A stretch of DNA of 64,000 nucleotides from a virus: positions 1 through 64,000 of IMG/VR virus record IMGVR_UViG_3300021963_000077; one strand, written 5' to 3'. Numbering within the stretch: the stretch's first letter is position 1; the number at the start of each line of letters is the position of its first letter. Below the pieces are notes generated by a model that was given only the letters and a program-made list of their open reading frames with translations, ran no database searches and was not told the DNA's origin. Shown here piece by piece: positions 28,065 through 55,970 of this stretch. The position numbers and the translations under genes are program-made.

Positions 28065-28253
28065 TTATGATGGGAATTCTATAATCTGACCAGATTTCTC
28101 TGCTTCGTCAATCAAAATCAATGCTTCTTTGAGCAATTGACGATTTTTAGGAGTATCTGGTACTTCAACTTCTTCAAGTGTGTCATCAAACATCGCAGCC
28201 ATCAATATCTGCTGGTAGGTGTTGAAATCAACTTCTGATTTTTGATCTTTCAT
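28065..28253 (-). CDS. small acidic protein, 62 aa
   Basis: The product (MKDQKSEVDFNTYQQILMAA...) is acidic and helical. The ATG overlaps the stop of the 28250 gene (ATGA), so the two are coupled. Position between a head-associated polyprotein and the capsid suggests a head-related helper, but function is unknown. Confidence 0.68.
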   Translation of the reverse strand: MKDQKSEVDFNTYQQILMAAMFDDTLEEVEVPDTPKNRQLLKEALILIDEAEKSGQIIEFPS

Positions 28254-31200
28254 GGTTCCTCACCTATGCGCATTGTGGTATTTAGGTTACTAGTGCTTAG
28301 GTACTGTTTTGTGCGATCATCAAAGATTTCCACAACCCAATTACCATTAGGACTCATGGCCTTGCGTGCTAGTAGCACTGGTTCACCGTCTGAATCATTA
28401 GCCCACAGGCTGAACTCATTAAAGTTACTCATTTCCATAGCCATAATATTTCGGAGATTTGCTTGAATTATGTCTACGTACTCTTCTGGCACTGATCTTC
28501 CAGTTTCTTGCTTTCTATTTCTTATGCGCGATAGCAAAACATCTCTATCACCAACGAAATAGTGCGCTTCAATTTTGTATCCAGCACGAGTCAGTCTGTC
28601 TAAAGTTCCTGGATCGTTGTTGAATTGACCACTTGAGTCAAAGACAACATCAAGCTCTTTTCTGATGGCTTCCTGGATGGTTGCGAATGCAATGTTTTGA
28701 GATTCCGTATGTGTTGCACCAGCAGCCGATGAGTTGCCTCTTGATATATAGCCGTTGTACTCAGGTATTAATTGTTTCATTTCGTCAATGTCAACATGAG
28801 CTGCTTCACGACGAGAAGGAATTCTCCCATCAAAACCATTAAGGCGTTGAGTTGTTTTTCCAGAACCTGGGGCGCCCCCAATGATAATCGCACGCTTTCT
28901 TAGCGTTGTCGGGTCGGTGCTATCTCTTTTCTTTGTTACGTAGTCAGTTATGCCACGCATAATTTCACGCCATACATTGTCGTAGCGCGAATCAGTAACT
29001 TTTCTTCCTCCAGCGCCATACTTTCCCATAGTGTGCTGACCACTCTGGTAGTCGCGTTCACTGAAGGTACTAGGCATCCTCTTGTCAATGTCAAGCATTT
29101 CATTGAGTTTGTAAGACGGCTGTGCCTGCATGGATCCAGATGGCCGACGTCCAGATGGTGTAACTATTGAACCCTTTGGAACAGAGCCACCAATTTTGTC
29201 TAGATAAGCCAGCGCGCTAATTTCTACAGGTGTAATTGACGATGTGCGCGTTCTTGCAGTTGACGCCATTGGCTTACTTGAGTAGTTACGCGTAGACATT
29301 GCACCAGATATAAATCTGCGATACATGGGGTTATCAAGAAGTGCTTGATCTTGTGCTTTTCTAGCCTGAATAGCTTTTCTGTATTCAGTTGGCGACAGTG
29401 CCCTAACCGCACCATCTGCTCGTTCCTCTGCGCGCTTGCGCATTTCCTCAAGCTTTGTCTTTTCATCTCTTAGTCTGTCAACTTTGGTATCTAGGCCATG
29501 GAATAAACCTCTTGTGCCACTACCAACTTCAGCATACTCATCAAGTTGCTGAATTAACTTCATAAACGTCGGGTTAGTATCTACTGCCCACTGATACATC
29601 CTAAAAGCAAAATCTTCCGACGACTCCCCATCTCCGCGGACTGGTTTTGTCTCGTAGAGCCAAGATCCAAGAACCATTGCCCGTGTGTATGCACGACGCG
29701 AAGCTTGATATTCAGCCGATGCTTGATTGCGCGCATTTTTTACTCTGTCAAGCTTCCTATTTAGGCGACGGATCTTTTCATCAATTGCCTTTATTGAGCG
29801 AGGAACAGTTGCTCCTAAAGCATCAATCTCGGCATCAATCTCAGCATTTGCCTTGTTCACCTCATATGCATCACGGCGCTTGATCCATGAACGCTCAGCT
29901 GCATTTATTGCACGTTCAACGTCATCCTTGTCCATTCCGGACTCTTGTCCAGCTTTAAGCAAGGCGCTGCGAAGGATGCTACGTGGTGTTGAATACTCAT
30001 CAGCTAGCTCTTGCAACCAAACATCTTCAGATGTGAATTGATTCCACAGATCTGCTCGCTTCTGTTGCGATGCCTTTGACCTTCCACTCCACGCATTTCT
30101 AAGTTGCTTGCGTTTTTCTTGGCTTGTAGAAATCTCGTCCGAGATGTCATCCCATGTTCGGTCATCATCGTCAAGGTCGCTATCAATGGCCGCCAACATT
30201 TTGTCCCAGTCAATTGACTCTGGATCCTTTAATTCTGGTGGCTCCGGTGCATATCTGTTTGGCTGATCCTCTATCCACTCACGCTCAACCCATGTTGGAT
30301 TTGCAAATGGTGAGTCTTTCCAAATATCGTATGAATTAATTGCGTCATCAAAGAATGATTCATCGTCTTTAGCGGCTTGCTCGACTGATTCAATTAGCTC
30401 TTCATAAGCACGCTCGTACTCATCCTCAACCAGACGCTCCAAGGCATCGTCCCATGGATCTTGATCGGAGCTTGGTGGAGGCGTTACCGACATTGCTCCA
30501 GCTATGCGACGCTTAGACATTGACCCACTGACATTTTTGTTTTTTCGTGGTTCGCGTAGGTCTTCATCTTCATACCGAGCTGCAACCGCATCACCAAACG
30601 ATTGAGCAACAAGGGAGCGCAATGAATTCTTATCGTCTTCACTGAGGTCATATATTGCTGCTAGCTTTGAAAAGCTATCAAAGTCTTCAGGAAGATTAAG
30701 TTGACCGCTCTCTGGATCAAGGTATCCAGAACGTAACTCGTTTATTATTGAATAAAGCTTTGATTGTTGTGCTTTTTGTTGCTCTGGACTTAACGCATCT
30801 TCACCATCAGGATTATCAATCCTTCTAAGACTTGCTCGCATTTCGTCAGGCGTAGCGCTCAATATTTCTTTGGGTGACCTAAAACCAAATACTGCCTCCA
30901 ACCTAGAAGCAGGAAGACTTTCAAGTTTTTCAGACGATACAAAACCAATGGCTTCAAATTGGCTCTCTATGTTTTTGAGTTTTCTATTGTCGCCTGGTTT
31001 ACCGCTAAAAATTGATGGCTCATCAATATATGGAGAATGCATCCATACTTCACCCTTTTGCGAATGGGTGATTGTAAAGCCTTGATCAATTGCTTCATTA
31101 ACCCATTTCTTAAGCTTTGGATCTTGAATACGTTTCATTGCTTGGGCGGTTGTTTCTGGCTGTGGAGTCGTTCGTGTTCCACGACGCAGCTGTGCAATAT

Positions 31201-31855
31201 CTTCAACCCTCAGAGCACCAGATATACGGCGAGGCCGTACCGCTGATGGTATTACTCTTGGCGTTGATGGGCGCTCAAATGCAGTTCCCTCTTGCACTAG
31301 ACCATCTGAATCACCATCAACAGCATTTGGATCATATGGTTCAGTATTTCTAGATATACGGCGAAGCTTTCTTCCCAGTGCTTTAGTATCCTGCGTTTGA
31401 CCAGACTTTGAAGATTTGCTCTTCCATGGGTGACCTTCAGGCAGCAGGTCCGAATCTCCAACATAACGAAGATTTGTTGGTTTACCCTTATCAAGCATTT
31501 TGAGGAATGCGTTTACGCGTCCGTATGCCCACTGGTTGCGAGACATGCCTGGTCTGTGTGAGCTTGAATAAGCACCAGCGCCGCGCCTAAATACCGCCTT
31601 TAGCGTACCAACGCTTGCCATGGCGTGACTTGGCCGGCCAAGTTCAGACATCTTCTTGTTGTGGATACGTACTTTTACCTGAAGTGCTCTAACTATGTCT
31701 TGTGACAGATCTATATCTTTTGCGCTTGACGCAGAAGACGCTGAACCTCTCTGGTTTTTAGAGGATCCAACGATTCGTTCGGATGGTTTTGATGGGGTTG
31801 CAGCTAGGCGGTCTTTTCTAGCCTTGCGCATTTTTTTGTTATTTTCACTCATCAT
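28250..31855 (-). CDS. head-associated polyprotein with C-terminal zeta-toxin-like kinase domain, 1201 aa
   Basis: The N-terminal part (65-145) has the LKAVFRRGAGAYSSSHRPGM region seen in phage structural proteins. A DGDSDGLVQ linker (about 170-196) follows, then RRISGAL (209-215). A middle charged helical part is flanked by RRIAGAM and FISGAM motifs. The C-terminus (about 985-1190) holds a P-loop with GGAPGSGKTT, DSSGQFNN and RNRKQETGRSVPEEY, as in zeta toxins and related kinases. Such kinases phosphorylate sugar nucleotides or other substrates. Whether it is a host effector or a maturation factor is unknown. Confidence 0.75.
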   Translation of the reverse strand: MMSENNKKMRKARKDRLAATPSKPSERIVGSSKNQRGSASSASSAKDIDLSQDIVRALQVKVRIHNKKMSELGRPSHAMASVGTLKAVFRRGAGAYSSSHRPGMSRNQWAYGRVNAFLKMLDKGKPTNLRYVGDSDLLPEGHPWKSKSSKSGQTQDTKALGRKLRRISRNTEPYDPNAVDGDSDGLVQEGTAFERPSTPRVIPSAVRPRRISGALRVEDIAQLRRGTRTTPQPETTAQAMKRIQDPKLKKWVNEAIDQGFTITHSQKGEVWMHSPYIDEPSIFSGKPGDNRKLKNIESQFEAIGFVSSEKLESLPASRLEAVFGFRSPKEILSATPDEMRASLRRIDNPDGEDALSPEQQKAQQSKLYSIINELRSGYLDPESGQLNLPEDFDSFSKLAAIYDLSEDDKNSLRSLVAQSFGDAVAARYEDEDLREPRKNKNVSGSMSKRRIAGAMSVTPPPSSDQDPWDDALERLVEDEYERAYEELIESVEQAAKDDESFFDDAINSYDIWKDSPFANPTWVEREWIEDQPNRYAPEPPELKDPESIDWDKMLAAIDSDLDDDDRTWDDISDEISTSQEKRKQLRNAWSGRSKASQQKRADLWNQFTSEDVWLQELADEYSTPRSILRSALLKAGQESGMDKDDVERAINAAERSWIKRRDAYEVNKANAEIDAEIDALGATVPRSIKAIDEKIRRLNRKLDRVKNARNQASAEYQASRRAYTRAMVLGSWLYETKPVRGDGESSEDFAFRMYQWAVDTNPTFMKLIQQLDEYAEVGSGTRGLFHGLDTKVDRLRDEKTKLEEMRKRAEERADGAVRALSPTEYRKAIQARKAQDQALLDNPMYRRFISGAMSTRNYSSKPMASTARTRTSSITPVEISALAYLDKIGGSVPKGSIVTPSGRRPSGSMQAQPSYKLNEMLDIDKRMPSTFSERDYQSGQHTMGKYGAGGRKVTDSRYDNVWREIMRGITDYVTKKRDSTDPTTLRKRAIIIGGAPGSGKTTQRLNGFDGRIPSRREAAHVDIDEMKQLIPEYNGYISRGNSSAAGATHTESQNIAFATIQEAIRKELDVVFDSSGQFNNDPGTLDRLTRAGYKIEAHYFVGDRDVLLSRIRNRKQETGRSVPEEYVDIIQANLRNIMAMEMSNFNEFSLWANDSDGEPVLLARKAMSPNGNWVVEIFDDRTKQYLSTSNLNTTMRIGEEP

Positions 31856-32870
31856 TCAGAACCATTCCAATACTGGTAGAAACAAAGCGCCTACCATCGA
31901 GCATCCTTGACTGAACCTCAATAAATTGAATTACAGAATTGTTTCTTTGAGACTTTTCTAATATAGCAATACCAGCAGACTTACCACGCATCATTCTTGT
32001 GACTCGCCTAGCAATTCTCTCTTCCGTAGCTCTTTCTCTTCGGTTGCGATCCCTCTGTGCTTGAGGTCCAATTCCTCGCCTACGACGATAATCGGATTCA
32101 TTTGTGCACGGCATCCAAGCAACGCCACCACTAGTAGTTGAATATCTACGAATACCAATGCACCCGAGCTCGCGCGACCTCTTCAAGGCCGATGTCTGAT
32201 TATCAAACACATCAGGATCCCCAGGACGGATTATCATAGGAACACCAAGAGAGTCCTTAACGTTGACAACCGTGCGAGTCGGCCATGCTGATTTCTGCGA
32301 ACCCCTAGAGCGCCTATTTGGAAGATTGTCCCTCATTGCATCAAGATGTCGGATGCCTTCAACATCTTGTTCCTTTAGCACTCTGAGTACCGTTCTTAAC
32401 CTCTTTATGCCTTCTTCGGTGAAGTTCATTGAGAGAGTTTCATCATCCTTTTTTACTGCGCCAGCTTGCTTGATTGCCGCAATTGCGCGCATCAGTGAGC
32501 GCCGGCGTTCTCGAGACTGGGTTTTGGAGTCTCCATACTCAAATTTCGGATCATTTAGAGCATCTTGCAGATACACCATCATGTCCGTGGAAAACTCATT
32601 CCATTCTCGCATTGATATTCCAGATACATTAAATGTCTCTGGTTTGGCCGGCGAACGCGAATATAAGTCCTCATCAGGCTCACTATCTAGGTCCAAGTCT
32701 CCTAGAGCATCACTTAGTTGAGGCTTTGGCGGGTTAAATCTACCCCAAGACATTGCTCCAGAAACTCTTGGTTTAGCAGGTCTTTGAAAAGGGGTTGCAT
32801 CCTGAACTAGTCCGTCATTGTCACCATCAATGGCGTTTGGATCATATCTTTCAAAAATGCGACGTTTCAT
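31845..32870 (-). CDS. head-associated protein beginning with the DxDxDG linker, 341 aa
   Basis: It starts MKRRIFERYDPNAIDGDNDG, so the linker is at the extreme N-terminus, followed by KPRVSGAM (33-40). A later segment ELGCIGIRRYSTTSGGVAWM then PC resembles the LGCSGAH...WMPC module of the 33151 protein. The ATG overlaps the stop of the 95-residue gene upstream in the -1 frame, so the two may once have been, or may still be, expressed as one product. Confidence 0.72.
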   Translation of the reverse strand: MKRRIFERYDPNAIDGDNDGLVQDATPFQRPAKPRVSGAMSWGRFNPPKPQLSDALGDLDLDSEPDEDLYSRSPAKPETFNVSGISMREWNEFSTDMMVYLQDALNDPKFEYGDSKTQSRERRRSLMRAIAAIKQAGAVKKDDETLSMNFTEEGIKRLRTVLRVLKEQDVEGIRHLDAMRDNLPNRRSRGSQKSAWPTRTVVNVKDSLGVPMIIRPGDPDVFDNQTSALKRSRELGCIGIRRYSTTSGGVAWMPCTNESDYRRRRGIGPQAQRDRNRRERATEERIARRVTRMMRGKSAGIAILEKSQRNNSVIQFIEVQSRMLDGRRFVSTSIGMVLNDE

Positions 32871-33154
32871 TGTTTTTTAGCACCGTTTTGTTTGCCCTTA
32901 TTGTTGTCTGGTCTTTTGAGTACACCAGCTGCAATAAGAGTGTCAATATAAAGCTTCCCGACTCCAGCAGGCAATGTTGAAGCAATTTGCTGCACATTCA
33001 TTATACGCATTTGCTCTGATTGCGTGTGGTTTGAGTGGCGCGAGCCAGATTCTGGCCAGTTATTTATTTCATCACATTCTGCAATATTTTGGAAAAATAA
33101 TTCACGTTTTTGTGGGTCAAACGAGTTAACTATTTTCATAATTTCTGAGTTCAT
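32867..33154 (-). CDS. small protein, 95 aa, coupled to the linker protein
   Basis: The ATG at 33154 overlaps the stop of the 33151 gene (ATGA). The product begins MNSEIMKIVNSFDPQKRELF and ends in a basic KGKQNGAKKQ tail, like the tails that precede the DxDxDG linker in other proteins of this set. The next gene begins in the -1 frame at the stop. Confidence 0.65.
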   Translation of the reverse strand: MNSEIMKIVNSFDPQKRELFFQNIAECDEINNWPESGSRHSNHTQSEQMRIMNVQQIASTLPAGVGKLYIDTLIAAGVLKRPDNNKGKQNGAKKQ

Positions 33155-35904
33155 TTGTACCACCTAAACATTTCTGGAGTTGTTTTTATATATTGAAGTA
33201 ATTCCGAGTACTCGAACATCATTGATAGATTTGCGTCAGTTAGGCCATTCATTCCGGACTGAGCTCCATAGATGAAGTTAATGTGATGGCGGGCTGCCTC
33301 AAACCCAAGAAGCTCAGCGGCAGCTACTCCGTTTCGCCACTCACCATCTCGGTCAAAACTTAAACCAAAAATGAAATGATTGAGGTCGTGTATATGCTCA
33401 AATGGAGCTGCACCACCAGACGAAAGCAACTTAAACTCTGGATCGCGCATCCAGTCAAGAGCGATATCTAGATATGTACCACTGTCGGATATGCCGTATC
33501 GTTCCGATGTTTCTGGCAATCCAAGCTTTTCACGAATAGCCTTAATAATTGGGTTGTAATACTGAGCCAACTCATTCAGTTTATCTGAGTATGCAATTAT
33601 TGAATCAGTTTGTTCTTTTGCGAATCGCCCTGCCTCGGTATCCGCAAACTCAATGTCTAAATTATTGAGCAATCCACGAGGCGTTGTGTCGTAGGGCGGA
33701 TTTTCCTTTACGTACCGATCATGCTCTTCCTTGTCATAGACAGGCGTTATTGGGGTTAGATATTTCATAAGAAAGGTCAAACCTATTCCTAGCCGGTCTG
33801 ACTTTGGTGCATTGTTTATTGTGTAGACATCTTCGCCATCTTTTGTTCTTGCTTTTAGAGTCTTACCATCCTTACTTCTTTCGGGTCTCCAAAATTCAGC
33901 AAGTTCTGTATCTTTTATTACTTGGTTGAGTATGGCTTCGCTAATTTCACGAGCCTCGTCATCATCGGGCTGGAAAACTTCAGTCTTTATCCTGTCACGG
34001 TTTGGGCCAAATTTATCGGCTAGGCCAGGTATTTCTGGAAGGCTCATAATTACGGACCCAGAAGGGCCTTCAGCTAGCTCAACCTCTGAAATGCGTTGCT
34101 CAGGTTTTTCAAATACTGGAAAAGCTTTTTCAAAAGCATCTTTTTGCTCTTCGTTCAGTTTTGAGAATGCAGACATTGATGCGGTTACCGCTAGTGGTCG
34201 TTCAAATGCTGTTGAGTCTTGAACTAATCCATCACCATCGCCATCTTCAGCATCTTGATCAAAGCGATCCGTTAGTGATTTTTTCTGAAGAGGAAGTTTT
34301 CTATCATCTGGACATGGTCCGGGATTGTCCCAATAATCCAAATGACCGACATAATGCTTTGTATGAGCCCTGTAGCTTTCAATCATGAACCTTACAGAAT
34401 TGAACTCTTTACAAAGACCAAGAACCTGGAGAGATCTTGCCATTTTCCATATACGCGTTCCATAAACCGAGCTTGGTGACTGACCGTTTGCAAAGTCTGG
34501 ATTATCAATCCATTCTTCCTTGTCTAGATCCCACGCCAAGGCAGATGTATAAAGTCTGGCAGCTTCAGCTACAGAGTCAGTAAACTCTTTGTTTTTGCGG
34601 AGTTTTTTAATGTTGGTTTTGGCTAGGTTGTAGCGTTCTCCATACGCTATTGATCCGCGGTCAATGGGAAATGTCCACCAGTCATAATGCTCTGAGTGAA
34701 ATTTTTTCCAGTTTGAATTATTAGCATATTCTTTGAATTTAGCAACTTGTGCTTTTTGATCTTTTATTACTGATTCATCTCCACCATATGGAGCATCATT
34801 CCAATAGCGTTTTTTCTTCTTTTTTGCTCTGAACTTAGAGAGCCAGTTTGACCCAGTTTTTTTCCGTTTTGCTGGTGAGGAAGGGCCTTGTGCGCCAAAA
34901 TCAAGCGTCATCTGCACGGGTTTTGATGGACGAGAGTTTGGAGCATCGGCGGAGCCAAGGGAGTCAATAAATGACTCATCTAGCGCTGTCTCCTCGAGCG
35001 CATCGTAGTCTTCCTGTAGTTCTTTTAACTCTTCTATGGATAGACCCGCAAAATGCGGATACATCCTATTGAGCGTATCTTCACTAATAGATGGGTCAAA
35101 ACGGTCTGAGACATAGTCTTCAAAGTCAATCAAGTCATCTGTAGAAAAAGCATCAATCAGCCTGAATGGCTGAGCAAAATCATCAAGCTCATCTGTTCCA
35201 AAAGAATCATCCGGTAGCAAGTTTCGGTCAAGAATGTAACCGCGCACAAGATCTGCATGCTGTGAGTCTGGAAGACTTGCTAGATTTGGATAGTAATCAG
35301 CTAGAGATTCTCTATTTTCCCCAGATAATATTGCCTCAACATACTCAGGCACTACATCAAAATCGTCTGAATTTAATTTTGATAGTATCTTTTTATATGC
35401 TTTTAAGGCTGACTCATCCTCGTCATTTATTCTTGCCATTGCCCCGACGATGCGCCTATTTGATGAAGGTCTTTTACCCATACGAGGTTTATCTGGTCTT
35501 TGCCAAGATGTTCCATCTTGAACAAAGCCATCTTCATCACCGTCAATAGCATTTGGGTCAAACCGCTGATTCAGGTTCCGTATGCGTGGAAGAGCCTTTC
35601 CAGAAACCTCAGCACTGACTAGTCCTCCACCTGGGAGGGTATCAATACCTAAAGGGCCACGCTCCGAAAGATTCTCCCAGTTGGAACCACGTTTTTTGCG
35701 TTTGGTTTTGCGATATACCTGATCAGGTATATCGTCGGTAGCCTTGTATTCGCGCTTTGGGTTTGACGTTTCAGCTTCGTTTGAGATTCGCTGAAGAGTT
35801 TCGTGCGAATCGCACGGCATCCAGTTGCCGTCACCGTCTTGGTGAGCACCAGAGCAGCCTAGATACCCTGCAACCTTAAGAGCTTCCTCTTTACTGCTTG
35901 CCAT
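33151..35904 (-). CDS. head-associated polyprotein with two DxDxDG linkers, 917 aa
   Basis: Residues 13-35 hold GYLGCSGAHQDGDGNWMPC. The first linker is at 115-136 (DPNAIDGDEDGFVQD), followed by RRIVGAM (150-156). A second linker (about 548-570, DGDGDGLVQDSTAFERP) is followed by TASMSAF. Between them lies a lysine-rich segment (KRKKTGSNWLSKFRAKKKKK). The last part contains HIHDLNHFIFGL and HHINFIYGAQ, an unnamed helical domain with histidines that could bind a metal. Repeated linkers and changing domains suggest a processed, modular virion protein. Confidence 0.72.
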   Translation of the reverse strand: MASSKEEALKVAGYLGCSGAHQDGDGNWMPCDSHETLQRISNEAETSNPKREYKATDDIPDQVYRKTKRKKRGSNWENLSERGPLGIDTLPGGGLVSAEVSGKALPRIRNLNQRFDPNAIDGDEDGFVQDGTSWQRPDKPRMGKRPSSNRRIVGAMARINDEDESALKAYKKILSKLNSDDFDVVPEYVEAILSGENRESLADYYPNLASLPDSQHADLVRGYILDRNLLPDDSFGTDELDDFAQPFRLIDAFSTDDLIDFEDYVSDRFDPSISEDTLNRMYPHFAGLSIEELKELQEDYDALEETALDESFIDSLGSADAPNSRPSKPVQMTLDFGAQGPSSPAKRKKTGSNWLSKFRAKKKKKRYWNDAPYGGDESVIKDQKAQVAKFKEYANNSNWKKFHSEHYDWWTFPIDRGSIAYGERYNLAKTNIKKLRKNKEFTDSVAEAARLYTSALAWDLDKEEWIDNPDFANGQSPSSVYGTRIWKMARSLQVLGLCKEFNSVRFMIESYRAHTKHYVGHLDYWDNPGPCPDDRKLPLQKKSLTDRFDQDAEDGDGDGLVQDSTAFERPLAVTASMSAFSKLNEEQKDAFEKAFPVFEKPEQRISEVELAEGPSGSVIMSLPEIPGLADKFGPNRDRIKTEVFQPDDDEAREISEAILNQVIKDTELAEFWRPERSKDGKTLKARTKDGEDVYTINNAPKSDRLGIGLTFLMKYLTPITPVYDKEEHDRYVKENPPYDTTPRGLLNNLDIEFADTEAGRFAKEQTDSIIAYSDKLNELAQYYNPIIKAIREKLGLPETSERYGISDSGTYLDIALDWMRDPEFKLLSSGGAAPFEHIHDLNHFIFGLSFDRDGEWRNGVAAAELLGFEAARHHINFIYGAQSGMNGLTDANLSMMFEYSELLQYIKTTPEMFRWYK

Positions 35905-35906
35905 GG

Positions 35907-36296: not shown

Positions 36297-36298
36297 GA

Positions 36299-44268: not shown

Positions 44269-44269
44269 T

Positions 44270-45363: not shown

Positions 45364-48300
45364 TTGATACCCAACACTTCTATTGCGTCTGGATGAATCG
45401 TATTGACCCAACGACGACCACGATACGCCCAGTCAAGCCACTTTACAATGTTTTGCTTGACAAGTTCTGGGATCATGTAATCCTTTATGCCGTGGCCCGA
45501 CATTAGGAGAGCATGTAGTTCGGCAAATATTTCCTGTGGTTCAATATCGCCTGGCTCAACCATCAGACCGCCATAATACGGTCGTTTTGATCCGTAAGAA
45601 CTAAATAATTTAGCTACATCTAATAAAGCCCGGCGATCAATTGGATCAGTAATTCCGTCCCATGTCCTTTGGCTTATTTCCCTGAAAGCTGCGCCTTGAT
45701 AGCCGTCAACTCCTAATTGAGTTGAAGGATCATAGAACATTGCAATGTCAAGATCGTAGCTGTAAGCCTCGTATGAATTTGATGGTGCTAGTTGCACATT
45801 TGTAACGGGATCATCAGGGAAGAATTCTTTATATATGTCTGATTCACGGATGTCTTCCATGAAAATTGGATCAGTAAGTATTGCCATTACTTCGTCTACA
45901 ACTCGCTCGTCGGCAATATTCTTCTTGCCATCTGGACCCATGTCTTTTCCGTAAAGTGAATGATCAGCTTCAAATGGAACAACAGTATAAATAATTTCTG
46001 AGTTCATAATAAAATCACGCAGATCAATCATATTCCGACCCGTGATTCGTTCTGCTTTTAGATTTGCTAGAGCATTGATGTACTCTGTTCTTTTTTGCTG
46101 AAGTGCTTTAGCGATTGATACATCTTTTGTCTGGCCTAAAGAAACTTCAAGTTTTGCAATCTCTAGTGGCAAATCTAGTATTGCGTCTTCAATCTTGGGA
46201 AGCAATGCTTCATAACGATCCGCTTGAATTTTTATAGTCGGCAGTATTTCTCTAGTAATTGTTCCAGTAAATATTTGTTTAGCATAACGCTTAGCCTTTG
46301 ATCTAACGGTATCAACAATTGCTTTGTCGCGTTCTAGTGCAGTTGTTCCAGACATTGACTCGTCATATGACAGAGATTCGGCCAAAGCATGGGCCATTTC
46401 ATGGTGTGCAATGTTCATGACTGCACCCGTTTGCGCAAGAGAGTGAATTTGACGGCGCTCAGCCTTGCTCATTCCACTATTTCCGGAAGAGTAAGCTGTT
46501 TTCATTATCTGTGTACCAATATTGTCGCTTGTTGAGTCTTTGTTGGATATGTAAACAGGCACAGTTTGTCCTGTTCGCGGGTCTACGTACATACGCATTG
46601 AATCACCGGAATGCTGACGAACAAGAGCTCCATCTGTGGCCAATTCCATAAGAAGCCACTTTGCTCCAGTTGAAGTGGAGCGATCAACGCCACCACTCCT
46701 ATCAAACTTGGAAACATTGGATTCAACAACGCCAGTCACTCCACCAAGAGAATCGCTTTGCTCGCGTATTGCGTAGCCCCAATCCTTTAATTCTGGTACT
46801 TGCATTGCTACTGAAATAACGCCAGCAAAAGCTGATATTTCTTCATTTGTTAAATCTCGATCATTACTACCAAAACCGGTGAATTTGATTTCTCTAAATA
46901 TTTGCGCCAATGCGCTCTTTGCGTCGCTCACTTTTCGCAGTGGGCCATATTTTGATTCAACGCTTAATATTGTGTCATCAACATATTTTCTGACATTATC
47001 AGCAGACATGCTTGGAGTTTGCTTGATTCTGTCATTATCTGCAATACTCCAATCTTTTATTTTGCCAGTCATTTCATCAATCATGTCGCGCAGTAATTGC
47101 TCAATATCGTTGAATGATGATCCTTCTGATTTTTTAGGTACAGGCCTTGACGTAGAACCTTGCTCAACGTCTCTCAACTTCTCGCTTACCGATGCAACAC
47201 CTACTGGGCGCTCAAACTGCGTTGAATCTTGCACCAAGCCGTCGCCATCACCATCTTCAGCTCTTGGATCAAACCTGGCCGTTAAAAGCCTGCCGATGCG
47301 ACGCATCTTTCGCGGCATCGCTTTTGCCTCTATCTCAACAAAATGTTCTTTTGTCTGTCCGACATTAAGTCCCATGAGCCTAAATACTTTGTATCTGCCG
47401 TCGCGTTTTACATCGTTGATTAAGTTCAATTGACCGCTACTCATAAGCCTGTCAAGAATGATCATATTATGAAGATCTGCAGCCCATACACCAAACTGCT
47501 TGCCGTCAGTTTTTTCAAACCCAGCCATGCTGTCTAGGATTTCGTCAATACCAATATTGTCGCCGGCAGACAAACCCATTCGCTGTCTAAAGATCTGCTT
47601 AAGTTGACCAAGGTATGTATCAGCTGCGTCAACTAAAATATCTTTCGCACTATCCTTGAGGCCGATGGTGTCTAGTTCTTGTCCTTTTTCTTTAGGGCTT
47701 TGCGGTCTGCTTGCGTAGAACTCCCCAGTGCGACCATCTTGCCTTACGTTATTTACAGTTGAAATATCTGATGTGTAGTTATTGATCTTTGGTGACCTGT
47801 ATCTACTGCCCTGATTTCTGAGTCGTGATTGATCTCTACGCTCAAGTGAATCAGACAAGAGCGCTCCAGCGCGTCTCTTGGCTCTGTTTACACGTCCACC
47901 TTGCTGTGGTGAAAAACGTGGACCACCAAGACTGCGTGGAACTCCATCAGCATCAACTGGAACATTGAAACGATCCGCAAATTCTTGTTGAATTATTTTC
48001 TCTAGGGTATTTTTATCTACTGCACCGATAAGGCTGGGATCTGCGTCTGCCAGCAATGAGTAGATCATTTTATAAGCTGCATAAAACTCAGCATTTGCTT
48101 CTATGCCAAAATTGCCACTTTTGTCAGTTGCGTGTGAATATTCCGACCCGACGATGTTGGCAAGGTTTTTAAGATTATCCTGTATCCCTTGGCTTGGATT
48201 TACGAGATCGTATAGCTCACTATATATTGCTTCAACGATTTGCTCACGTTTAGTTTCATCAGTTTCTAGTGGAAGTGCATCCACTAAAGGCTTGATATTG

Positions 48301-49697
48301 GGATGTGAACTTATATCTAGAACTTTACGATTTACTAGTTCGCCAGTTGCTGTATCAAGAACTTGCATATCCTTGGTTTCAGTGATTCCTGCCTGGTTTA
48401 GCTTTGCTCTAAAGTCAGCAAAATGACCGAACTCATGAGTTCCTACTTCATGTCCAAATGTCCGCATATCTGGAGGTGTTGCAAAAAGGTGCCTAGGATT
48501 GTCACCCGATACATATTGATATGTACCTCGTAGTTGCTCTGGTGCCATCAGGAGCCCAAACATTCCATCGCCATCAATTGTTAATTGAGCTAAGTCGCCA
48601 CCAATCTCCTGTGCGTCAACTAGCTTCATTGAGCCAAGCATTTGAGACCACTCGCGATTATCGTAGGCTTCTAGTAGAAATGCCTCAATAAAACCCCACC
48701 TAAACTTCACATAGTCAGCAACTTCTTCGGCGTCAGAAAATTTTTCCAAAGGAATATTCAGAAAGTCATCTATTTCTTTTTCTGGCACATTAGGAAATGA
48801 CTCCCTCATTGCTTTTTTCATCTGACGAGCAGAGCGAAGGCTGCGACGGCCAGAGATTAAGCTGCGTCTTCCAAGACCTTGGTAAGCAGCTTTGCGTCTA
48901 AGGGCAGCGCTTTCCTTGAGAAGCCGTTTGCGTAGGCTCAGCTCTTCGTCACCAACGACCATATCGCCGTTTGGCGTAGTGGCACGTAGACCTACTGCAA
49001 CAGATCCATTTATTGATTGTTTTGCGACCCGAGCTGCTCCACGCGCAGCTCCACCAGCAACAGTTCTAGCTGAAGGAATCATGCAATTTGATAACTGTAG
49101 GTCAGTGAACTGACCGCCGCCTGGGGTTTCCTCTGGACACCTCAAACGCCCTTGATCGTCAAATGGGATGTTCCTTGATCTAGCAATTCGCAGCAACAGG
49201 TTGGGGAGTTTTGAATCATCCCCGAGTGTCATTCCCAAAACGCCTTTAGCGTTAAAAGTCTGACCGTTAACGACAAACTTATCTGGGTCTTTTATTAGGC
49301 CATAACCAGTTTCGTCATTATTTGGGCCGAGGCGACATACGACCATTTTGTGCCCAGGCGGAACTAGTGGTACTGGATCACCTTTTTTGAATGTTGATAC
49401 AAAGTGATCGTAGGGGTGTAGTTTTTTTTCTGCCTTAGCTTTTGGCGTGGCATCGGTAATCGTCTTCTCTGGCTGCTTTTCTGCTTTGTGGCGCATGCCA
49501 AAGGATGATCCTTTAGCTGCAAGTATGCGCGATTCGGCCCACCGAGCTGTGTCTACTGCGGTACTTAATTCGCTCGCTTCAAAACTCATTTTTATATGCG
49601 AGCCAACAGACTTGGTGCTAAGGCGCCAAGCGTCAGTAGACGCCGTGTTGCCATCATTGCTATCCGCCGGCGAGCCCTCATGAATACCATCAGGCAC
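45360..49697 (-). CDS. giant modular protein with two HExxH metalloprotease-like motifs, 1445 aa
   Basis: The N-terminal part contains the RCP module (RLRCPEETPGGGQFTDLQLS, then NC). Near residue 416 is FGHEVGTHEFGHFADF (HExxH), and a second, NIAHHEMAHALAESL, lies near 1091. Both look like zinc-metallopeptidase sites. A helical LHN-type module (about 700-790), shared with the 36299 protein, precedes the DxDxDG linker (about 808-830, DPRAEDGDGDGLVQD). The protein may cleave cell wall, host or virion proteins, or the HExxH motifs may be structural. No start other than 49697 is better supported. Confidence 0.75.
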   Translation of the reverse strand: MPDGIHEGSPADSNDGNTASTDAWRLSTKSVGSHIKMSFEASELSTAVDTARWAESRILAAKGSSFGMRHKAEKQPEKTITDATPKAKAEKKLHPYDHFVSTFKKGDPVPLVPPGHKMVVCRLGPNNDETGYGLIKDPDKFVVNGQTFNAKGVLGMTLGDDSKLPNLLLRIARSRNIPFDDQGRLRCPEETPGGGQFTDLQLSNCMIPSARTVAGGAARGAARVAKQSINGSVAVGLRATTPNGDMVVGDEELSLRKRLLKESAALRRKAAYQGLGRRSLISGRRSLRSARQMKKAMRESFPNVPEKEIDDFLNIPLEKFSDAEEVADYVKFRWGFIEAFLLEAYDNREWSQMLGSMKLVDAQEIGGDLAQLTIDGDGMFGLLMAPEQLRGTYQYVSGDNPRHLFATPPDMRTFGHEVGTHEFGHFADFRAKLNQAGITETKDMQVLDTATGELVNRKVLDISSHPNIKPLVDALPLETDETKREQIVEAIYSELYDLVNPSQGIQDNLKNLANIVGSEYSHATDKSGNFGIEANAEFYAAYKMIYSLLADADPSLIGAVDKNTLEKIIQQEFADRFNVPVDADGVPRSLGGPRFSPQQGGRVNRAKRRAGALLSDSLERRDQSRLRNQGSRYRSPKINNYTSDISTVNNVRQDGRTGEFYASRPQSPKEKGQELDTIGLKDSAKDILVDAADTYLGQLKQIFRQRMGLSAGDNIGIDEILDSMAGFEKTDGKQFGVWAADLHNMIILDRLMSSGQLNLINDVKRDGRYKVFRLMGLNVGQTKEHFVEIEAKAMPRKMRRIGRLLTARFDPRAEDGDGDGLVQDSTQFERPVGVASVSEKLRDVEQGSTSRPVPKKSEGSSFNDIEQLLRDMIDEMTGKIKDWSIADNDRIKQTPSMSADNVRKYVDDTILSVESKYGPLRKVSDAKSALAQIFREIKFTGFGSNDRDLTNEEISAFAGVISVAMQVPELKDWGYAIREQSDSLGGVTGVVESNVSKFDRSGGVDRSTSTGAKWLLMELATDGALVRQHSGDSMRMYVDPRTGQTVPVYISNKDSTSDNIGTQIMKTAYSSGNSGMSKAERRQIHSLAQTGAVMNIAHHEMAHALAESLSYDESMSGTTALERDKAIVDTVRSKAKRYAKQIFTGTITREILPTIKIQADRYEALLPKIEDAILDLPLEIAKLEVSLGQTKDVSIAKALQQKRTEYINALANLKAERITGRNMIDLRDFIMNSEIIYTVVPFEADHSLYGKDMGPDGKKNIADERVVDEVMAILTDPIFMEDIRESDIYKEFFPDDPVTNVQLAPSNSYEAYSYDLDIAMFYDPSTQLGVDGYQGAAFREISQRTWDGITDPIDRRALLDVAKLFSSYGSKRPYYGGLMVEPGDIEPQEIFAELHALLMSGHGIKDYMIPELVKQNIVKWLDWAYRGRRWVNTIHPDAIEVLGIK

Positions 49698-49714
49698 GTC
49701 GCCTCCAGTTTTAA

Positions 49715-51542: not shown

Positions 51543-51586
51543 GTGGATCAAAATCCTAATCTGTATAACGACTGGATCATTTTATA

Positions 51587-52513
51587 CTAACCCGAATACC
51601 GTAGCTTTGGTGGCTTCTTGATCCGAGGTCTAGCTTTTTCAGCATTCCTCAATGCTTCGAGCATTTTGGCTCTGTTGATCTTGACATCCACGATTCGCAT
51701 ACCAAATTTTTCAGCTGCTTCCGCCTCGGAGTGATTGCTGAGGTAGAGCAAGAAGCTTTTCGCATTGGGTGTCAATACTTGTGGATGATTATTAATTAAA
51801 TTAATGATTTCTGTATTAACGCCTTCTAGTTTCTGATCTGCTTCAGTATCAATGATGCGATTGTCTGGAGTGTTGAGATTAAATTCTTCGTTATATCGTT
51901 TAATAAATTTACCGACTAACGCTTGGCTAACTTTTAAAGCCTCAGCAATTTTTTCGTATGATATTCCGTACTGTGAAAAAGTGTACATTAATTGACCTTT
52001 TTCCAGAGACGATAAATCACTTAACCCAATGTCAAAATCCCTTACAGATCTGTCCACGGTTGATTTGTCTACACCGAATGCCTTGGAAACTTCATCTTTG
52101 CTAAATCCATATTTTCTAGCAACTGAAATAATTTTACGCTTTTGCTTAAAAACGCTTCTAGCAGAAATGTTATTTTTTTTCAAAACGACAGAAACATAGT
52201 CGCTTGTCACTCCAACATCCTGCGCAATTTGATTTGGCCCAATGCCGAGTCTTGCCTGTCTTACGATTTCTTTGATGCGCCCGCTGCGATCCACATTTGA
52301 AGTGCTTACATTTCCTAGCTTTTGTTTATTACGTGAGGCGCGCCTAACGGTCGCAATGCTTACTCCATATTTCTTAGCTAGGGCTTTTGCTATCTCGGCT
52401 CGCTCTTTTGGAGTTTTGCCTTTGGCTATTTCTTCGGCCATTTCGTTGCTTCTACGCTCAAATTCAGCTACAGAAGATGCTTGGTTTACAGTTCTTCCCA
52501 CTCCTGTAGTCAT
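51587..52513 (-). CDS. multi-HTH protein of the head block, expressed as -1 frameshift fusion (ATG-only part)
   Basis: This 308-residue frame holds about five helix-turn-helix-like units (YGVSIATVRRA, VGVTSDYVSVVL, YGFSKDEVSKAF with VDKSTVDRSV, YGISYEKIAEALKVSQALVG, EAAEKFGMRIVDVKI). The open frame runs another 49 codons upstream, without ATG/GTG/TTG, into a DGDGDGLIQD linker and VSGSM. That upstream part can be translated only by a -1 frameshift at 52660-52666 in the preceding gene, or from a CTG. The first ATG alone would lose the linker. Confidence 0.7.
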   Translation of the reverse strand: MTTGVGRTVNQASSVAEFERRSNEMAEEIAKGKTPKERAEIAKALAKKYGVSIATVRRASRNKQKLGNVSTSNVDRSGRIKEIVRQARLGIGPNQIAQDVGVTSDYVSVVLKKNNISARSVFKQKRKIISVARKYGFSKDEVSKAFGVDKSTVDRSVRDFDIGLSDLSSLEKGQLMYTFSQYGISYEKIAEALKVSQALVGKFIKRYNEEFNLNTPDNRIIDTEADQKLEGVNTEIINLINNHPQVLTPNAKSFLLYLSNHSEAEAAEKFGMRIVDVKINRAKMLEALRNAEKARPRIKKPPKLRYSG

Positions 52514-52619
52514 GCTTCCGGAGACCGCGCGACGAACTGAGGGTCGTTCAAACTGTGTTGCGTCTTGAATTAGGCCGTCGCCGTCACCATCAAATGCGTT
52601 TGAATCAAACCTATCGGTA

Positions 52620-52666
52620 AGGCGCCCTAGGCGGCGTGCGTCGCCTGTGCGCCTCAGGCTTTTAAA
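52620..52666 (-). promoter_or_regulatory. predicted programmed -1 ribosomal frameshift signal
   Basis: The zero-frame codons GAT TTA AAA GCC TGA contain the slippery heptamer T TTA AAA (52660-52666) in the correct X XXY YYZ phase, 3 nt before the stop. After a 5-nt spacer, AGGCGC (52649-52654) pairs with GCGCCT (52620-52625), with an inner GGCG/CGCC stem, a stimulator-like hairpin. The -1 frame continues without a stop into the multi-HTH ORF and encodes the shared linker. Confidence 0.72.
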
Positions 52667-53013
52667 TCAAGACCGCTAGCAACAGACTTGACTACAGCAC
52701 TAATTGCATCTATTGCGTCTTCGTCCAGGTAATCCATATCCTCGATAACTAAAGACTTTGTTTCCTGCTGTATGGAAACACCGTAGTAATCAAGCACGGG
52801 CTCAAGAAAAGATTTAGCCCCCATCAGGGCCTCGTCGTCGCCAGTAATCACAAGGTTTACCTTGTTCTTGCCGCCATCAGATGAATCTATGACTTCCGCC
52901 AAAAGCTCTAAGGCTTGTCTTAATTTGCCCATATTCCTGTTGCTAATAACGCGACCACTCTTTACGTCAATGTCGTTTCCATATGGTGTTGAAAGAAAAA
53001 TTTTAGTTTCCAT
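52654..53013 (-). CDS. small protein, zero-frame part of a frameshift fusion, 119 aa
   Basis: The ATG at 53013 overlaps the stop of the protease gene (TAATG). The product (METKIFLSTPYGNDIDVKSG...) resembles, in size and position, the domain that precedes the linker in the protease protein (LEDGLVVPNSDSMSEEGYEA). Termination gives 119 residues. A -1 shift after Lys118 would give a fusion of about 475 residues with the linker and multi-HTH part. Confidence 0.75.
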   Translation of the reverse strand: METKIFLSTPYGNDIDVKSGRVISNRNMGKLRQALELLAEVIDSSDGGKNKVNLVITGDDEALMGAKSFLEPVLDYYGVSIQQETKSLVIEDMDYLDEDAIDAISAVVKSVASGLDLKA

Positions 53014-55970
53014 TATCGCCTGTTCCCATAATCTCGCCATAACTGTTGAAGTCTGTTTAAATCAGCTGTTGATATTTGACCATTGTCAAAGCGCTCTAAA
53101 ATTCTCTGAACTATTTGAAATCCGCGATTTTTCCTAGCCCAATCAATTGATTGATTCTGCTGTCTTGTGAGAACCCTTTTGCCTATTTTTCCACTTTGCA
53201 GTTGCTTAAGCATGTCGTCTAGCCCTTGGCCAGATCTGGCCCCAAACTGTTTTGCGGTGTCATAGTCGAGTTCATACTGCTCAACACTGCCATCACCCAT
53301 ATTGAATATGACGCGGTTTGTCTGTGGGTCATATGCGGCATCCGATACTCGCCTGCTACCTCGAGTATCAAACTTCATTAAATAACTAGGAATTGCTGGC
53401 CTGTCTGGATTATCTTGACCCGATCCAGTCATTGACCCAGACACGGAGCGCTTGTTCTTGCGACTACGAAGAACGTCTAGGAAATCTTCCACGGCATTGG
53501 CTGGGCGAGGCTCCAAAACTGAGTTTGCGTGGATCCTCTCAGCTTCGCTTTCGCTAACTTTATGTTCTTCCGTCCTACCATTAATCAATGTAAAACGAGC
53601 AGTACCAGACTCTTTGTCGTAGGTAGCGTCTTTTAGGATTCTTGAACCACGCGTGTCAAATGATGGAGTTTTGTTATCTTTGCTCCATCCAAACTTTTCT
53701 AGGTGTTTTCTAGCCTCTTCGCTAAACCCTGAATATTGCGGCTTGGGGCGATTTGAAATAGATCCAGATACGCGAGGAGTTTTATCTTTTGGGTTATCAC
53801 CCTCAGTACGACGTTTCATAGAGGCAATTCGCATTTCAATTTGCCTAACTTGAGCACGTGTCATATTCATGCGTTGCGATACGTCATCGAGCGACATACC
53901 GTCCTCTGTGCGCATTTTCCAAATTTGATCACGAATTTTCTTGGCTTGGCGCATTTCAGATTGTCTCACCTCTTCACGCGTGATGCCAAAATTCTTCGCA
54001 ACTTCATCCAGCGACATGCCGCCTTCTGTGCGCATTTTCCAAATCTTCTCTGGTGTCGGCTTGCCCTTTGCCATTGAACCAGATATCCGCGACCCAACTG
54101 GTACTGGTCTTTCTGGCCGTGGCCCAGGCGTTGGCGTTGGTGCAGGGCTAGGAACCGATGGTCTGACTGGTGGGCGAATTGGCTCTCTTGCTGGCTCCGG
54201 AACCTTTCGCGGTGGATTCATTGGGGGCATCATGCGAGGCGCATTTGGGCGCTCAAATGATGTGCTGTCTTGCACTAAACCGTCTTCGTCCCCATCAATT
54301 GCATTAGGATCAAAACGATCTGTTGCCATTCTCCCCATACGTCTGAGTTTGCGACCAACAGCCTTCTCTTCTAAGAAGTTAATTGCCGTCAGTAGCGCCT
54401 CGTAGCCCTCTTCTGACATGGAGTCACTGTTTGGAACAACAAGACCATCTTCAAGACTCTTGACATCAAATCCATGATATTTAGCTACAGCACTAGCTAC
54501 CTCTAGCAATTCATCAATTTCGCTTTCGGATTGGATAAATAGATGAATTCCAGGGTTTTCACTCTTGAAAGCATCCCATGACGGCATGTCATCAATGACA
54601 TATGATTTCCCACCACCACATCCACAACCACAATCATCCTTAGCCGGCTTCATGGCCACTCCGCCAAATGCCGCTCCAAAGTCATCATTGTCGTCGCCTA
54701 CATATGCATTTCCTGGAGCGCTTTGTGGCTTGCCAACAGGCATGTAAATTGTCTCTGGCTTCACCGTTTCAGCATTTCCAAACATGAATTCGCCATCTTC
54801 GTAGTGATAGCCGACTCGGATTGTCTGCATATCTCCGAAGTCGTTCATGAGGTCAAAAATAACCATGTTTTTATCTGCTGTACGGATTTTTACTTTGCCG
54901 CCAAACCGTTGAGAAATAGCCTTGGCAAGGTCGTTAACACGCCCAAATGCTGGATTCATCTCCTCGTCGCCAGTATAGATACGGGATGTGTCGTAGCTAG
55001 GGTGGCCTTTTTTCTTCACATTCTGGTATCTCTCAAGGAGTCGCCGGCCTTTAGCTGCAAGCTCTGCTGCATCGGATGCATTTTTAGGAACTGGTTCACC
55101 CCATGCAGCGGCAGCTAGCGCTAGACGAGTCGGCTTGCCATTTTTGCCGACAAGTGGGCCAGATGGGTTTGTATAGAATCGCGTCAAGAACGAGCCTTTA
55201 CGACGCATTTTCTCTGGTGTGTCAGCTGGGCCCTTGACGCCTGGCTTTAGATTTGCGCCTTCCTTCTGCTTAAAGTACTTGCGCCCTGCTGGCGTCAGGC
55301 CACCCTTTGGATCCCTCAAATTTGCTGATTTGCCTTCAGGCTCAGAAGGCACGCAATTTGGCACCATTTTGCCGTTTTTGCCCTTCTTCATTCCTACCTG
55401 CTGGTAACCGGGCCAGCAAGGACTACCTGCCTTGCTTTCCGGATCGTCGGATTTGATTGAAATTGTGCCAGTCAGCTGATTGGCTCCGTGGAGAACTGGG
55501 GAAACCTCATAGAGTTCAACCTCTTTAAGGAGATTTGCTTGCTGAACTGGGTCAAATACTGCGTCAAGGGTCTTGTAACCAATTGACCACTCTTGCTCTT
55601 CGCCAAAGAAGGCAACATTATTGAAAGCCTCACGACCACGCTCAGAACGCAAATTAAATTGCACTCTTGCATAAAGTCCACCAATTCCGGCTTTTTTCAT
55701 CTTTAGCGGTAGGCGTGGATCATTCGGTGGCACCTCATATATTTCCAGAACCTTACCGATTGGCTCATTCCAGTTATGACCCCAAACAACTCTCGGCTTA
55801 CGTCTTTTAAGACTTGCTCCAAAACAGTTCGGGAGGCAAATATCGCCAACAGAATCTTTATTGCCGATGCCAGCAACGAAGCATTCAACGATGCCCTGCG
55901 CTTCGTCAACCCCGATTTGAGCTGGAATTGACTTGTATTCTGTTGCAAATAGCGATGATTGGTCAGACAT
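53013..55970 (-). CDS. HK97-type prohead protease fused to DxDxDG-linked accessory domains, 985 aa
   Basis: Residues 1-170 are an S78-type prohead protease: RVVWGHNW (His65), EWSIGYKT (Ser129) and an acidic residue near 150. A DUF6321-like region (GGLTPAGRKYFKQKEGANLK) follows, then a GCGCGGGKS spacer and the linker (about 551-573, DPNAIDGDEDGLVQD). After a Pro-rich stretch and ISGSM come two HTH units (MSLDEVAKNFGITREEVRQ and MSLDDVSQRMNMTRAQVRQI), SGSI and SGSM motifs, and KTSC-like repeats (FDTRGSRRVSDAAYDPQTNR). Typical proteases are about 200 residues. GGAGGAAAA precedes the ATG. Confidence 0.85.
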   Translation of the reverse strand: MSDQSSLFATEYKSIPAQIGVDEAQGIVECFVAGIGNKDSVGDICLPNCFGASLKRRKPRVVWGHNWNEPIGKVLEIYEVPPNDPRLPLKMKKAGIGGLYARVQFNLRSERGREAFNNVAFFGEEQEWSIGYKTLDAVFDPVQQANLLKEVELYEVSPVLHGANQLTGTISIKSDDPESKAGSPCWPGYQQVGMKKGKNGKMVPNCVPSEPEGKSANLRDPKGGLTPAGRKYFKQKEGANLKPGVKGPADTPEKMRRKGSFLTRFYTNPSGPLVGKNGKPTRLALAAAAWGEPVPKNASDAAELAAKGRRLLERYQNVKKKGHPSYDTSRIYTGDEEMNPAFGRVNDLAKAISQRFGGKVKIRTADKNMVIFDLMNDFGDMQTIRVGYHYEDGEFMFGNAETVKPETIYMPVGKPQSAPGNAYVGDDNDDFGAAFGGVAMKPAKDDCGCGCGGGKSYVIDDMPSWDAFKSENPGIHLFIQSESEIDELLEVASAVAKYHGFDVKSLEDGLVVPNSDSMSEEGYEALLTAINFLEEKAVGRKLRRMGRMATDRFDPNAIDGDEDGLVQDSTSFERPNAPRMMPPMNPPRKVPEPAREPIRPPVRPSVPSPAPTPTPGPRPERPVPVGSRISGSMAKGKPTPEKIWKMRTEGGMSLDEVAKNFGITREEVRQSEMRQAKKIRDQIWKMRTEDGMSLDDVSQRMNMTRAQVRQIEMRIASMKRRTEGDNPKDKTPRVSGSISNRPKPQYSGFSEEARKHLEKFGWSKDNKTPSFDTRGSRILKDATYDKESGTARFTLINGRTEEHKVSESEAERIHANSVLEPRPANAVEDFLDVLRSRKNKRSVSGSMTGSGQDNPDRPAIPSYLMKFDTRGSRRVSDAAYDPQTNRVIFNMGDGSVEQYELDYDTAKQFGARSGQGLDDMLKQLQSGKIGKRVLTRQQNQSIDWARKNRGFQIVQRILERFDNGQISTADLNRLQQLWRDYGNRR

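What the first reader, a model, noticed from the sequence alone, without database searches (positions are those of the whole stretch)
28250..55970. Modular head-block proteins joined by a repeated DxDxDG (EF-hand-like) linker
Seven copies of a linker (consensus RFDPNAxDGDxDGLVQD, then xTxFERP) occur in six products between the prohead protease and the capsid gene, near 31301-31333, 32785-32850, 34195-34260, 35500-35562, 47212-47275, 52540-52607 and 54246-54315. Flanking domains differ from protein to protein. The DxDxDGxV core resembles a calcium loop, although the usual final Glu is absent. I infer a reused connector in a family of virion polyproteins, possibly used for calcium-dependent folding or release. 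I know of no description of such a system.
Basis: partly seen in the sequence, partly recalled or inferred. Interest (0 to 1): 0.88.

Follow-up and report, generated by a model that had tools for sequence, protein, structure and literature searches.

The report
Portable calcium-loop tag on phage proteins
Uncultured aquatic phages carry the same 23-residue, calcium-loop-like peptide on dozens of otherwise unrelated head, neck, tail and lysis-cassette proteins (seven copies in this phage), so it looks like an undescribed portable tag and not just a connector, although what it binds is unproven.

Summary
Seven copies of [FY]xPxAxDGDxDGLVQDxTxFERP lie in six head-block products of a contractile-tailed phage, and nowhere else in its 89.5-kb contig. 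The copies are conserved as protein, not DNA. Among 206 distinct tagged ORFs (up to 47 sequence clusters) it sits at the C-terminus (78), N-terminus (55) or internally (73), so it is not specifically a connector. Three carriers have tag-free homologues in public phage genomes, one showing near-clean insertion. Contigs selected only on the VQ[DE]GTxFERP half still keep Asp at loop positions 1, 3 and 5; with Asp/Glu at position 10 the spacing matches the Excalibur motif DxDxDGxxCE, not an EF-hand. Window-specific extras: a second motif, [IV][STAV]G[AS]M, occurs eight times, only in tagged proteins (candidate prohead-protease site); and one tag is reachable only by a probable −1 frameshift (T_TTA_AAA plus hairpin). 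Best reading: a metal-loop docking tag recruiting diverse proteins to phage assembly. Metal binding, partner and function are untested.

The parts
54246..54314 (-). tag copy 1 (FDPNAIDGDEDGLVQDSTSFERP) in the prohead protease product
   Evidence: boundary position in AF2 model
52541..52609 (-). tag copy 2 (FDSNAFDGDGDGLIQDATQFERP), upstream of and in frame with the HTH ORF; reached only by -1 frameshift or a non-standard start
47205..47273 (-). tag copy 3 (FDPRAEDGDGDGLVQDSTQFERP) in the 1445-aa product
35494..35562 (-). tag copy 4 (FDPNAIDGDEDGFVQDGTSWQRP) in the 917-aa product
34195..34263 (-). tag copy 5 (FDQDAEDGDGDGLVQDSTAFERP) in the same 917-aa product
32778..32846 (-). tag copy 6 (YDPNAIDGDNDGLVQDATPFQRP), N-terminal in the 341-aa product
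31268..31336 (-). tag copy 7 (YDPNAVDGDSDGLVQEGTAFERP) in the 1201-aa product
53013..55970 (-). prohead protease polyprotein (Peptidase_S78, DUF6321, tag, HTH modules)
   Evidence: Pfam; AF2
52660..52666 (-). T_TTA_AAA slippery heptamer, one codon before the stop of ORF 52654-53040
   Evidence: sequence; conserved in L111, L119, L120
52618..52656 (-). predicted hairpin 3 nt after the heptamer (-22.6 kcal/mol; relatives -23.5 and -23.8)
52654..53040 (-). zero-frame ORF (128 aa) that the -1 frameshift would fuse to tag + HTH protein
51587..52513 (-). HTH-repeat protein downstream of tag copy 2
   Evidence: Pfam HTH_23
45360..49697 (-). 1445-aa tagged product; zincin-like HEFGH and HEMAH motifs seen by eye, no Pfam or PDB sequence match
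33151..35904 (-). 917-aa product with two tags and an N-terminal DUF3721-like segment
31845..32870 (-). 341-aa product with N-terminal tag
28250..31855 (-). 1201-aa product: DUF5824-like N-terminus, tag, C-terminal zeta-toxin-type kinase
   Evidence: Pfam
54072..54086 (-). ISGSM motif between tag and HTH of the protease product
53430..53444 (-). VSGSM motif, protease product C-terminal part
52511..52525 (-). VSGSM motif after tag copy 2 (VSGGV in relatives)
35437..35451 (-). IVGAM motif after tag copy 4
32751..32765 (-). VSGAM motif after tag copy 6
30518..30532 (-). VSGSM motif in the 1201-aa product
30491..30505 (-). IAGAM motif in the 1201-aa product
29297..29311 (-). ISGAM motif before the kinase module of the 1201-aa product

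Best explanation
The repeated segment is a portable, virus-specific 23-residue tag, [FY]-x-P-x-A-x-D-x-D-x-D-G-x-V-Q-[DE]-[GS]-T-x-[FWH]-[EQ]-R-P. SHOWN: it is grafted at the N-terminus, C-terminus or inside many unrelated phage proteins and is absent from some of their homologues. INFERRED, strong: its acidic loop binds Ca2+ (or another divalent cation) through Asp 1/3/5 and Asp/Glu 10, as in Excalibur-type loops, and becomes ordered when loaded. INFERRED, moderate: the ordered tag docks on a shared partner of phage assembly, so that cargo (in this phage: protease, HTH, kinase and zincin-like modules) is brought into or onto the prohead. It would work like a T4 capsid targeting sequence or a dockerin without being either. 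In this phage, the [IV][STAV]G[AS]M motifs found only in tagged proteins would then be prohead-protease sites that free the cargo after assembly.
For: Seven tags, all in the head block. Up to 47 sequence clusters among 206 distinct tagged ORFs, in all three positions. Near-clean insertion: phiPsal1 gp007 (53 aa, between prohead protease and MCP) against 76-78-aa tagged homologues with conserved flanks, one of them (L103) shown between protease and MCP. Tag-free neck homologues in phages Salgado and Mae-JY09, next to or near the major tail protein; tag-free MSRFSDLFQ homologue in phage DSL-LC03. In loci sampled for several small carriers, neighbours are portal, head protease, MCP, major tail, tail sheath and connector genes. 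Selecting only on VQ[DE]GTxFERP, loop position 1 is D 71/73 (else N), position 3 D 73/73, position 5 D 74/74. AF2 of the tag with a 63-row alignment: pLDDT 87-88 in the core, LV pairing with RP. [IVFA][STAV]G[AS]M: 8 observed against 0.09 expected in tagged products, none in other genes tested. Codon identity near codon-usage expectation.
Against: No partner was identified and no virion proteomics exists for these phages. Some carriers sit near lysis or non-virion genes: one-TM proteins beside a CHAP endolysin, PG-binding or LysM proteins beside holin-like genes, a 52-aa protein between ATPase and peptidase genes, so 'virion' may be too narrow. In protease relatives the loop drifts (DADGDR, NADGDL, DGNSNM) or is replaced by another DxDxDG loop, so a unique receptor may not be needed there. 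The cytoplasm is Ca-poor, so Ca-dependent docking during assembly is not obvious. The [IV][STAV]G[AS]M motif is absent from this phage's MCP and is clade-specific; matches outside the protease position were not surveyed.
Confidence: 0.45

Rival explanations
1. Calcium-responsive structural switch without a receptor: the tag is loose in the Ca-poor cytoplasm and folds when the particle meets Ca-rich water, stiffening or protecting the chain; it unfolds again when ejected into a new host.
For: Loop Asp triad conserved without being selected for; Excalibur-like motifs in disordered chains bind Ca2+ at about 100 uM and compact (PMC8391695); flanks are somewhat richer in disorder-promoting residues; two different DxDxDG loops occupy the same position in protease relatives.
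Against: Conservation extends well beyond the loop (A, VQ[DE]GT, FERP), more than a simple metal switch needs; carriers predicted to stay in the cell also have it.
Confidence: 0.23
2. Processing signal: the tag itself is the recognition or cleavage element of the prohead protease, separating modules.
For: In this phage tags sit at module boundaries and the protease itself carries one; T4 gp21 removes short propeptides in the same way (PMC9026906).
Against: Terminal tags on 52-190-aa proteins, and tags on proteins near lysis genes, have no obvious need for cleavage; most of the 23 residues are conserved, whereas known prohead-protease sites such as L/I-x-E are short; the separate [IV][STAV]G[AS]M motif is the better site candidate.
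Confidence: 0.13
3. The tag binds a host component (membrane, wall or cytosolic protein) and not a phage structure, localising phage proteins during infection or lysis.
For: Recurrent pairing with PG-binding or LysM-like domains and with one-TM proteins near endolysins.
Against: Carriers in the head block and between protease and MCP; the range of carriers suggests more than one host group, though hosts are unknown.
Confidence: 0.1
4. Chance or compositional similarity of acidic segments.
For: Asp/Gly-rich segments are common.
Against: 0 in 2000 shuffles; residues outside each search pattern are conserved; 7 true hits in 84,980 genomes against saturated viral scans.
Confidence: 0.01

Closest known systems
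phrog_7924 (PHROGs v4, function unknown)
   Same: Its profile ends in this tag (positions 83-112); all eight diverse tagged proteins tested matched it, the unrelated ones presumably through the tag, and three window products match it through the tag.
   Different: It is one carrier family, a small neck-region protein, not a description of the tag; no function recorded.
Excalibur calcium-binding motif DxDxDGxxCE
   Same: Same loop spacing with the acidic residue at position 10 (DxDxDGxVQ[DE]); motif definition from PMC8391695.
   Different: Q in place of the Cys, virus-only, extra conserved [FY]xPxA and GTxFERP flanks; no Pfam Excalibur match among the tagged proteins scanned.
EF-hand and type I dockerin
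   Same: DxDxDG start of a calcium loop; a dockerin is likewise a graftable docking module.
   Different: No flanking helices in the tag model, no acidic residue at position 12, usually a single copy, no cohesin found; no Pfam match.
Phage T4 capsid targeting sequences (CTS)
   Same: A short sequence on diverse internal head proteins that brings them into the prohead and is processed by the prohead protease (PMC9026906).
   Different: CTS is an N-terminal peptide of about 10 residues cut at L/I-x-E; this tag is 23 residues, in any position, with an acidic loop.
Polyvalent proteins of phages (Iyer et al. 2017, PMC5512222)
   Same: Large multidomain products with peptidase, enzyme and DNA-binding domains beside head genes, predicted to be packaged and injected.
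   Different: No linker, calcium or EF-hand element is mentioned there; the tag also occurs on small single-domain proteins.

Membership tests
EF-hand | 12-residue loop with acidic residue at position 12 | tested here: not met
   Position 12 is T or S; the acidic residue is at position 10
EF-hand | Helices flanking the loop | tested here: not met
   AF2 of the tag shows no helix within the 48-aa model; no Pfam EF-hand match
Excalibur (DxDxDGxxCE) | Loop spacing with acidic residue at position 10 | tested here: met
   DxDxDGxVQ[DE]; Asp at 1, 3 and 5 nearly invariant without selection
Excalibur (DxDxDGxxCE) | Cys before Glu, and similarity to the Pfam domain | tested here: not met
   Q in place of Cys; no Excalibur match at E up to 0.1
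Excalibur (DxDxDGxxCE) | Binds Ca2+ | not testable with these tools
   needs ITC or NMR on the peptide
T4-type capsid targeting sequence | Directs its carrier into proheads | not testable with these tools
   only gene position is available: tagged genes between protease and MCP, after MCP, and in the head block
T4-type capsid targeting sequence | N-terminal position | tested here: not met
   C-terminal 78, N-terminal 55, internal 73 of 206
Polyvalent proteins (carriers in this window) | Several unrelated domains in one product encoded with head genes | tested here: met
   S78 protease + DUF6321 + HTH; zeta-toxin kinase + DUF5824-like
Polyvalent proteins (carriers in this window) | Packaged and injected | not testable with these tools
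   no virion proteomics
Programmed -1 frameshift (52654 + HTH product) | X_XXY_YYZ heptamer, short spacer, downstream structure, conserved -1 frame | tested here: met
   T_TTA_AAA, hairpin z -2.0, -3.9 and -3.5, frame and linker kept in three contigs; those contigs are close relatives and expression was not measured

The most novel reading that the evidence does not exclude
Aquatic phages share a virus-only, metal-dependent docking tag that can be grafted onto many late proteins, with one conserved partner that sorts tagged proteins into capsids, necks and membrane sites.
Probability: 0.3. Interest if true: 0.9.

Novelty: new variant of a known kind. Interest (0 to 1): 0.72.

Why it matters
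If the tag recruits proteins to phage particles, it would give a sequence-only way to predict virion and injected proteins in uncultured phages, where most genes have no known function, and a small portable handle for loading cargo into capsids. If it is instead a calcium switch, it would tie phage particle state directly to water chemistry. The many unrelated carriers and the tag-free homologues make either idea easy to test.

Tried and rejected
Direct tblastn of the isolated tag against phage records found nothing; the query is too short to be informative. PDB sequence profile and Foldseek gave no convincing match. Internal translation starts as the reason for the Met in SG[AS]M: rejected because the codons before it vary with no consistent Shine-Dalgarno and relatives have GTG or variant residues. 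A recent DNA duplication or mobile cassette: rejected, codon identity is near codon-usage expectation. The tag as a host gene: rejected, only 7 true hits among 84,980 genomes, on MAG contigs, at least L325 and L329 with phage head-block genes; the other hits lack the tag's flanks. The strict-pattern genome scan gave zero hits, which the looser scan qualifies. Known relatives (Gordonia phages GMA6 and DalanDe; DSL-LC01, itself metagenome-assembled, PMC10611076) lack the tag in the regions read. PDB searches for the zincin-like and C-terminal modules found nothing. Deeper relatives L123, L145, L188 and L197 keep TTTAAAA before the stop but no tag or HTH there, so the frameshift use is clade-specific and the heptamer alone is not proof.

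Full report
CHECK. All seven segments are present on the - strand, in six products; composition-preserving shuffles of the head-block proteins gave none in 2000 trials. The window is the first 64 kb of an 89,510-nt virus contig, and no further copy occurs in it. Between copies, shared residues use the same codon 50% of the time against 41% expected from codon usage, so selection acts on the peptide. The products are the S78 prohead protease (53013-55970; Pfam), an HTH protein, a 1445-aa protein with two zincin-like motifs seen by eye, a 917-aa protein with two copies, a 341-aa protein, and a 1201-aa protein ending in a zeta-toxin-type kinase. The portal, with a MuF domain, lies upstream and the HK97-type capsid gene downstream.

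WIDER DISTRIBUTION. The two scans test each other. Contigs chosen for the loop keep A(-2) (103 of 105), T/S(+11), R(+15) and mostly F/Y(-6), none of which was in the pattern. Contigs chosen for the second half keep Asp at loop position 1 in 71 of 73 (the rest Asn), position 3 in 73 of 73, position 5 in 74 of 74, and Gly 6 in 67 of 74. So this is one 23-residue element. A looser pattern in 84,980 bacterial and archaeal genomes matched 12 contigs. Seven (L324, L325, L326, L328, L329, L331, L334) hold true tags; they are metagenome-derived contigs, and at least L325 and L329 show the same phage head-block genes; the other five lack the flanking residues or the frame.

NOT JUST A CONNECTOR. Across fetched loci, 239 tagged ORFs (206 distinct) fall into up to 47 sequence clusters after the tag is masked; some singletons are divergent or truncated members of one family. 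The tag is C-terminal in 78, N-terminal in 55 and internal in 73; some carry two in tandem. Carriers include a neck-region protein, a 78-aa protein between protease and capsid gene, a protein just after the capsid gene, a protein before the tail sheath, proteins with PG-binding domains (E 1.7e-7 in one; weaker PG-binding or LysM matches in others), one-transmembrane proteins beside a CHAP endolysin, and the N-terminal regions of 1000-3300-aa products. Several single records hold three or four copies tens of kilobases apart.

TAG-FREE HOMOLOGUES. Phage phiPsal1 of Pontimonas has a 53-aa protein between protease and capsid gene that matches tagged proteins of 76-78 aa in both flanks, with the tag missing. 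The neck-region protein has tag-free homologues in Arthrobacter phage Salgado, immediately before the major tail protein, and in Microcystis phage Mae-JY09, in the neck/tail gene run. Synechococcus phage DSL-LC03 (metagenome-assembled) has a tag-free MSRFSDLFQ protein. In relatives of the protease at about 50-57% identity, the same position carries drifted tags (DADGDRLVQEGT, NADGDLLVQDGT, DGNSNMRVQDGT) or a different DxDxDG loop, KPSxFDGDGDGxRTGPDGRDNIP.

STRUCTURE. The tag alone, with a 63-row alignment, is predicted with pLDDT 87-88 in its core: an acidic loop and a short bridge between LV and RP, no helices. Foldseek found no PDB match. In the protease model the folded part ends at residue 546, the tag follows, then a low-confidence Pro-rich stretch, then HTH domains from 640. 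The tag itself scores low (about 50) in that model, whose alignment holds few tagged rows. The spacing DxDxDGxVQ[DE] equals that of Excalibur (DxDxDGxxCE), and Excalibur-like motifs in disordered chains bind Ca2+ at about 100 uM and change compaction (PMC8391695). Metal binding here is inferred.

SECOND MOTIF. [IVFA][STAV]G[AS]M occurs eight times in the tagged products against 0.09 expected, zero times in the six untagged head-block products tested and in 13 other window genes, and nowhere else in the contig in ORFs over 100 codons. It lies between modules, and protease relatives keep a related [IVLFA][STAV]GxM, mostly at the end of their Pro-rich stretch, in 17 of 48 sequences. Codons vary. 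I infer a prohead-protease site; this is untested.

FRAMESHIFT. Tag copy 2 has no standard start codon in frame before it. The upstream 128-aa ORF ends GAT TTA AAA GCC TGA, a canonical T_TTA_AAA heptamer, followed 3 nt later by a hairpin of -22.6 kcal/mol (z -2.0; relatives -3.9 and -3.5). The -1 frame leads into the tag, and the arrangement is kept in L111, L119 and L120. Deeper relatives lack the tag and HTH there.

MECHANISM. The facts fit a graftable docking tag better than a spacer: it is conserved well beyond a metal loop, occurs at any position, and is optional on a given carrier. In this phage the carriers resemble phage polyvalent proteins (PMC5512222), predicted to be packaged and injected, and the tag would play the part of T4's capsid targeting sequences (PMC9026906), with the [IV][STAV]G[AS]M sites releasing modules. 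The main doubt is the carriers near lysis and other non-head genes. By the positive-inside rule the tag of the one-TM proteins would face the cytoplasm, which could still fit an assembly partner; this is inference. A receptor-free calcium switch is the main rival.

NOVELTY. No matching family was found in Pfam or NCBIfam; PHROGs holds it only as the tail of the unannotated phrog_7924. Literature searches found no description, within an open-access library. It works like known tags but is not a member of any family tested.

Noticed in passing
window 52618-52666 (-): Probable programmed -1 frameshift: T_TTA_AAA plus hairpin fuses the 128-aa ORF 52654-53040 to tag + HTH protein.
   Followed up: partly
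window 49104-49142, 43864-43902 and the N-terminal part of 36299-42253 (-): A further reused element, RCPxGxxxGGxFTDxxxSxCG, in three head-block products (a variant in the third); 14 distinct copies seen in relatives.
   Followed up: partly
window 44270-44962 (-): Strongly conserved domain (GPRRGNLERLLRYWRPIMKKPGGFRRC...HHETTGLWPNEG) that is fused to the prohead protease in relatives such as L185, L173 and L175.
   Followed up: partly
L121-L188 protease ORFs: Alternative DxDxDG loop (KPSxFDGDGDGxRTGPDGRDNIPYxP) replaces the tag at the same protease position; one per locus.
   Followed up: partly
L013:6046-6408 (-): Truncated NDP-sugar-epimerase-like protein ends in the tag.
   Followed up: no
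L063, L078, L098, L102: 52-54-aa proteins with one transmembrane segment followed by the tag; beside a CHAP endolysin in L078, near an endolysin-like gene and an HslV-like peptidase gene in L102.
   Followed up: partly
L222 tag ORF, L208, L258, L018, L028: Repeated pairing of the tag with peptidoglycan-binding or LysM-like domains in unrelated small proteins (only L222 above the Pfam cut-off).
   Followed up: partly
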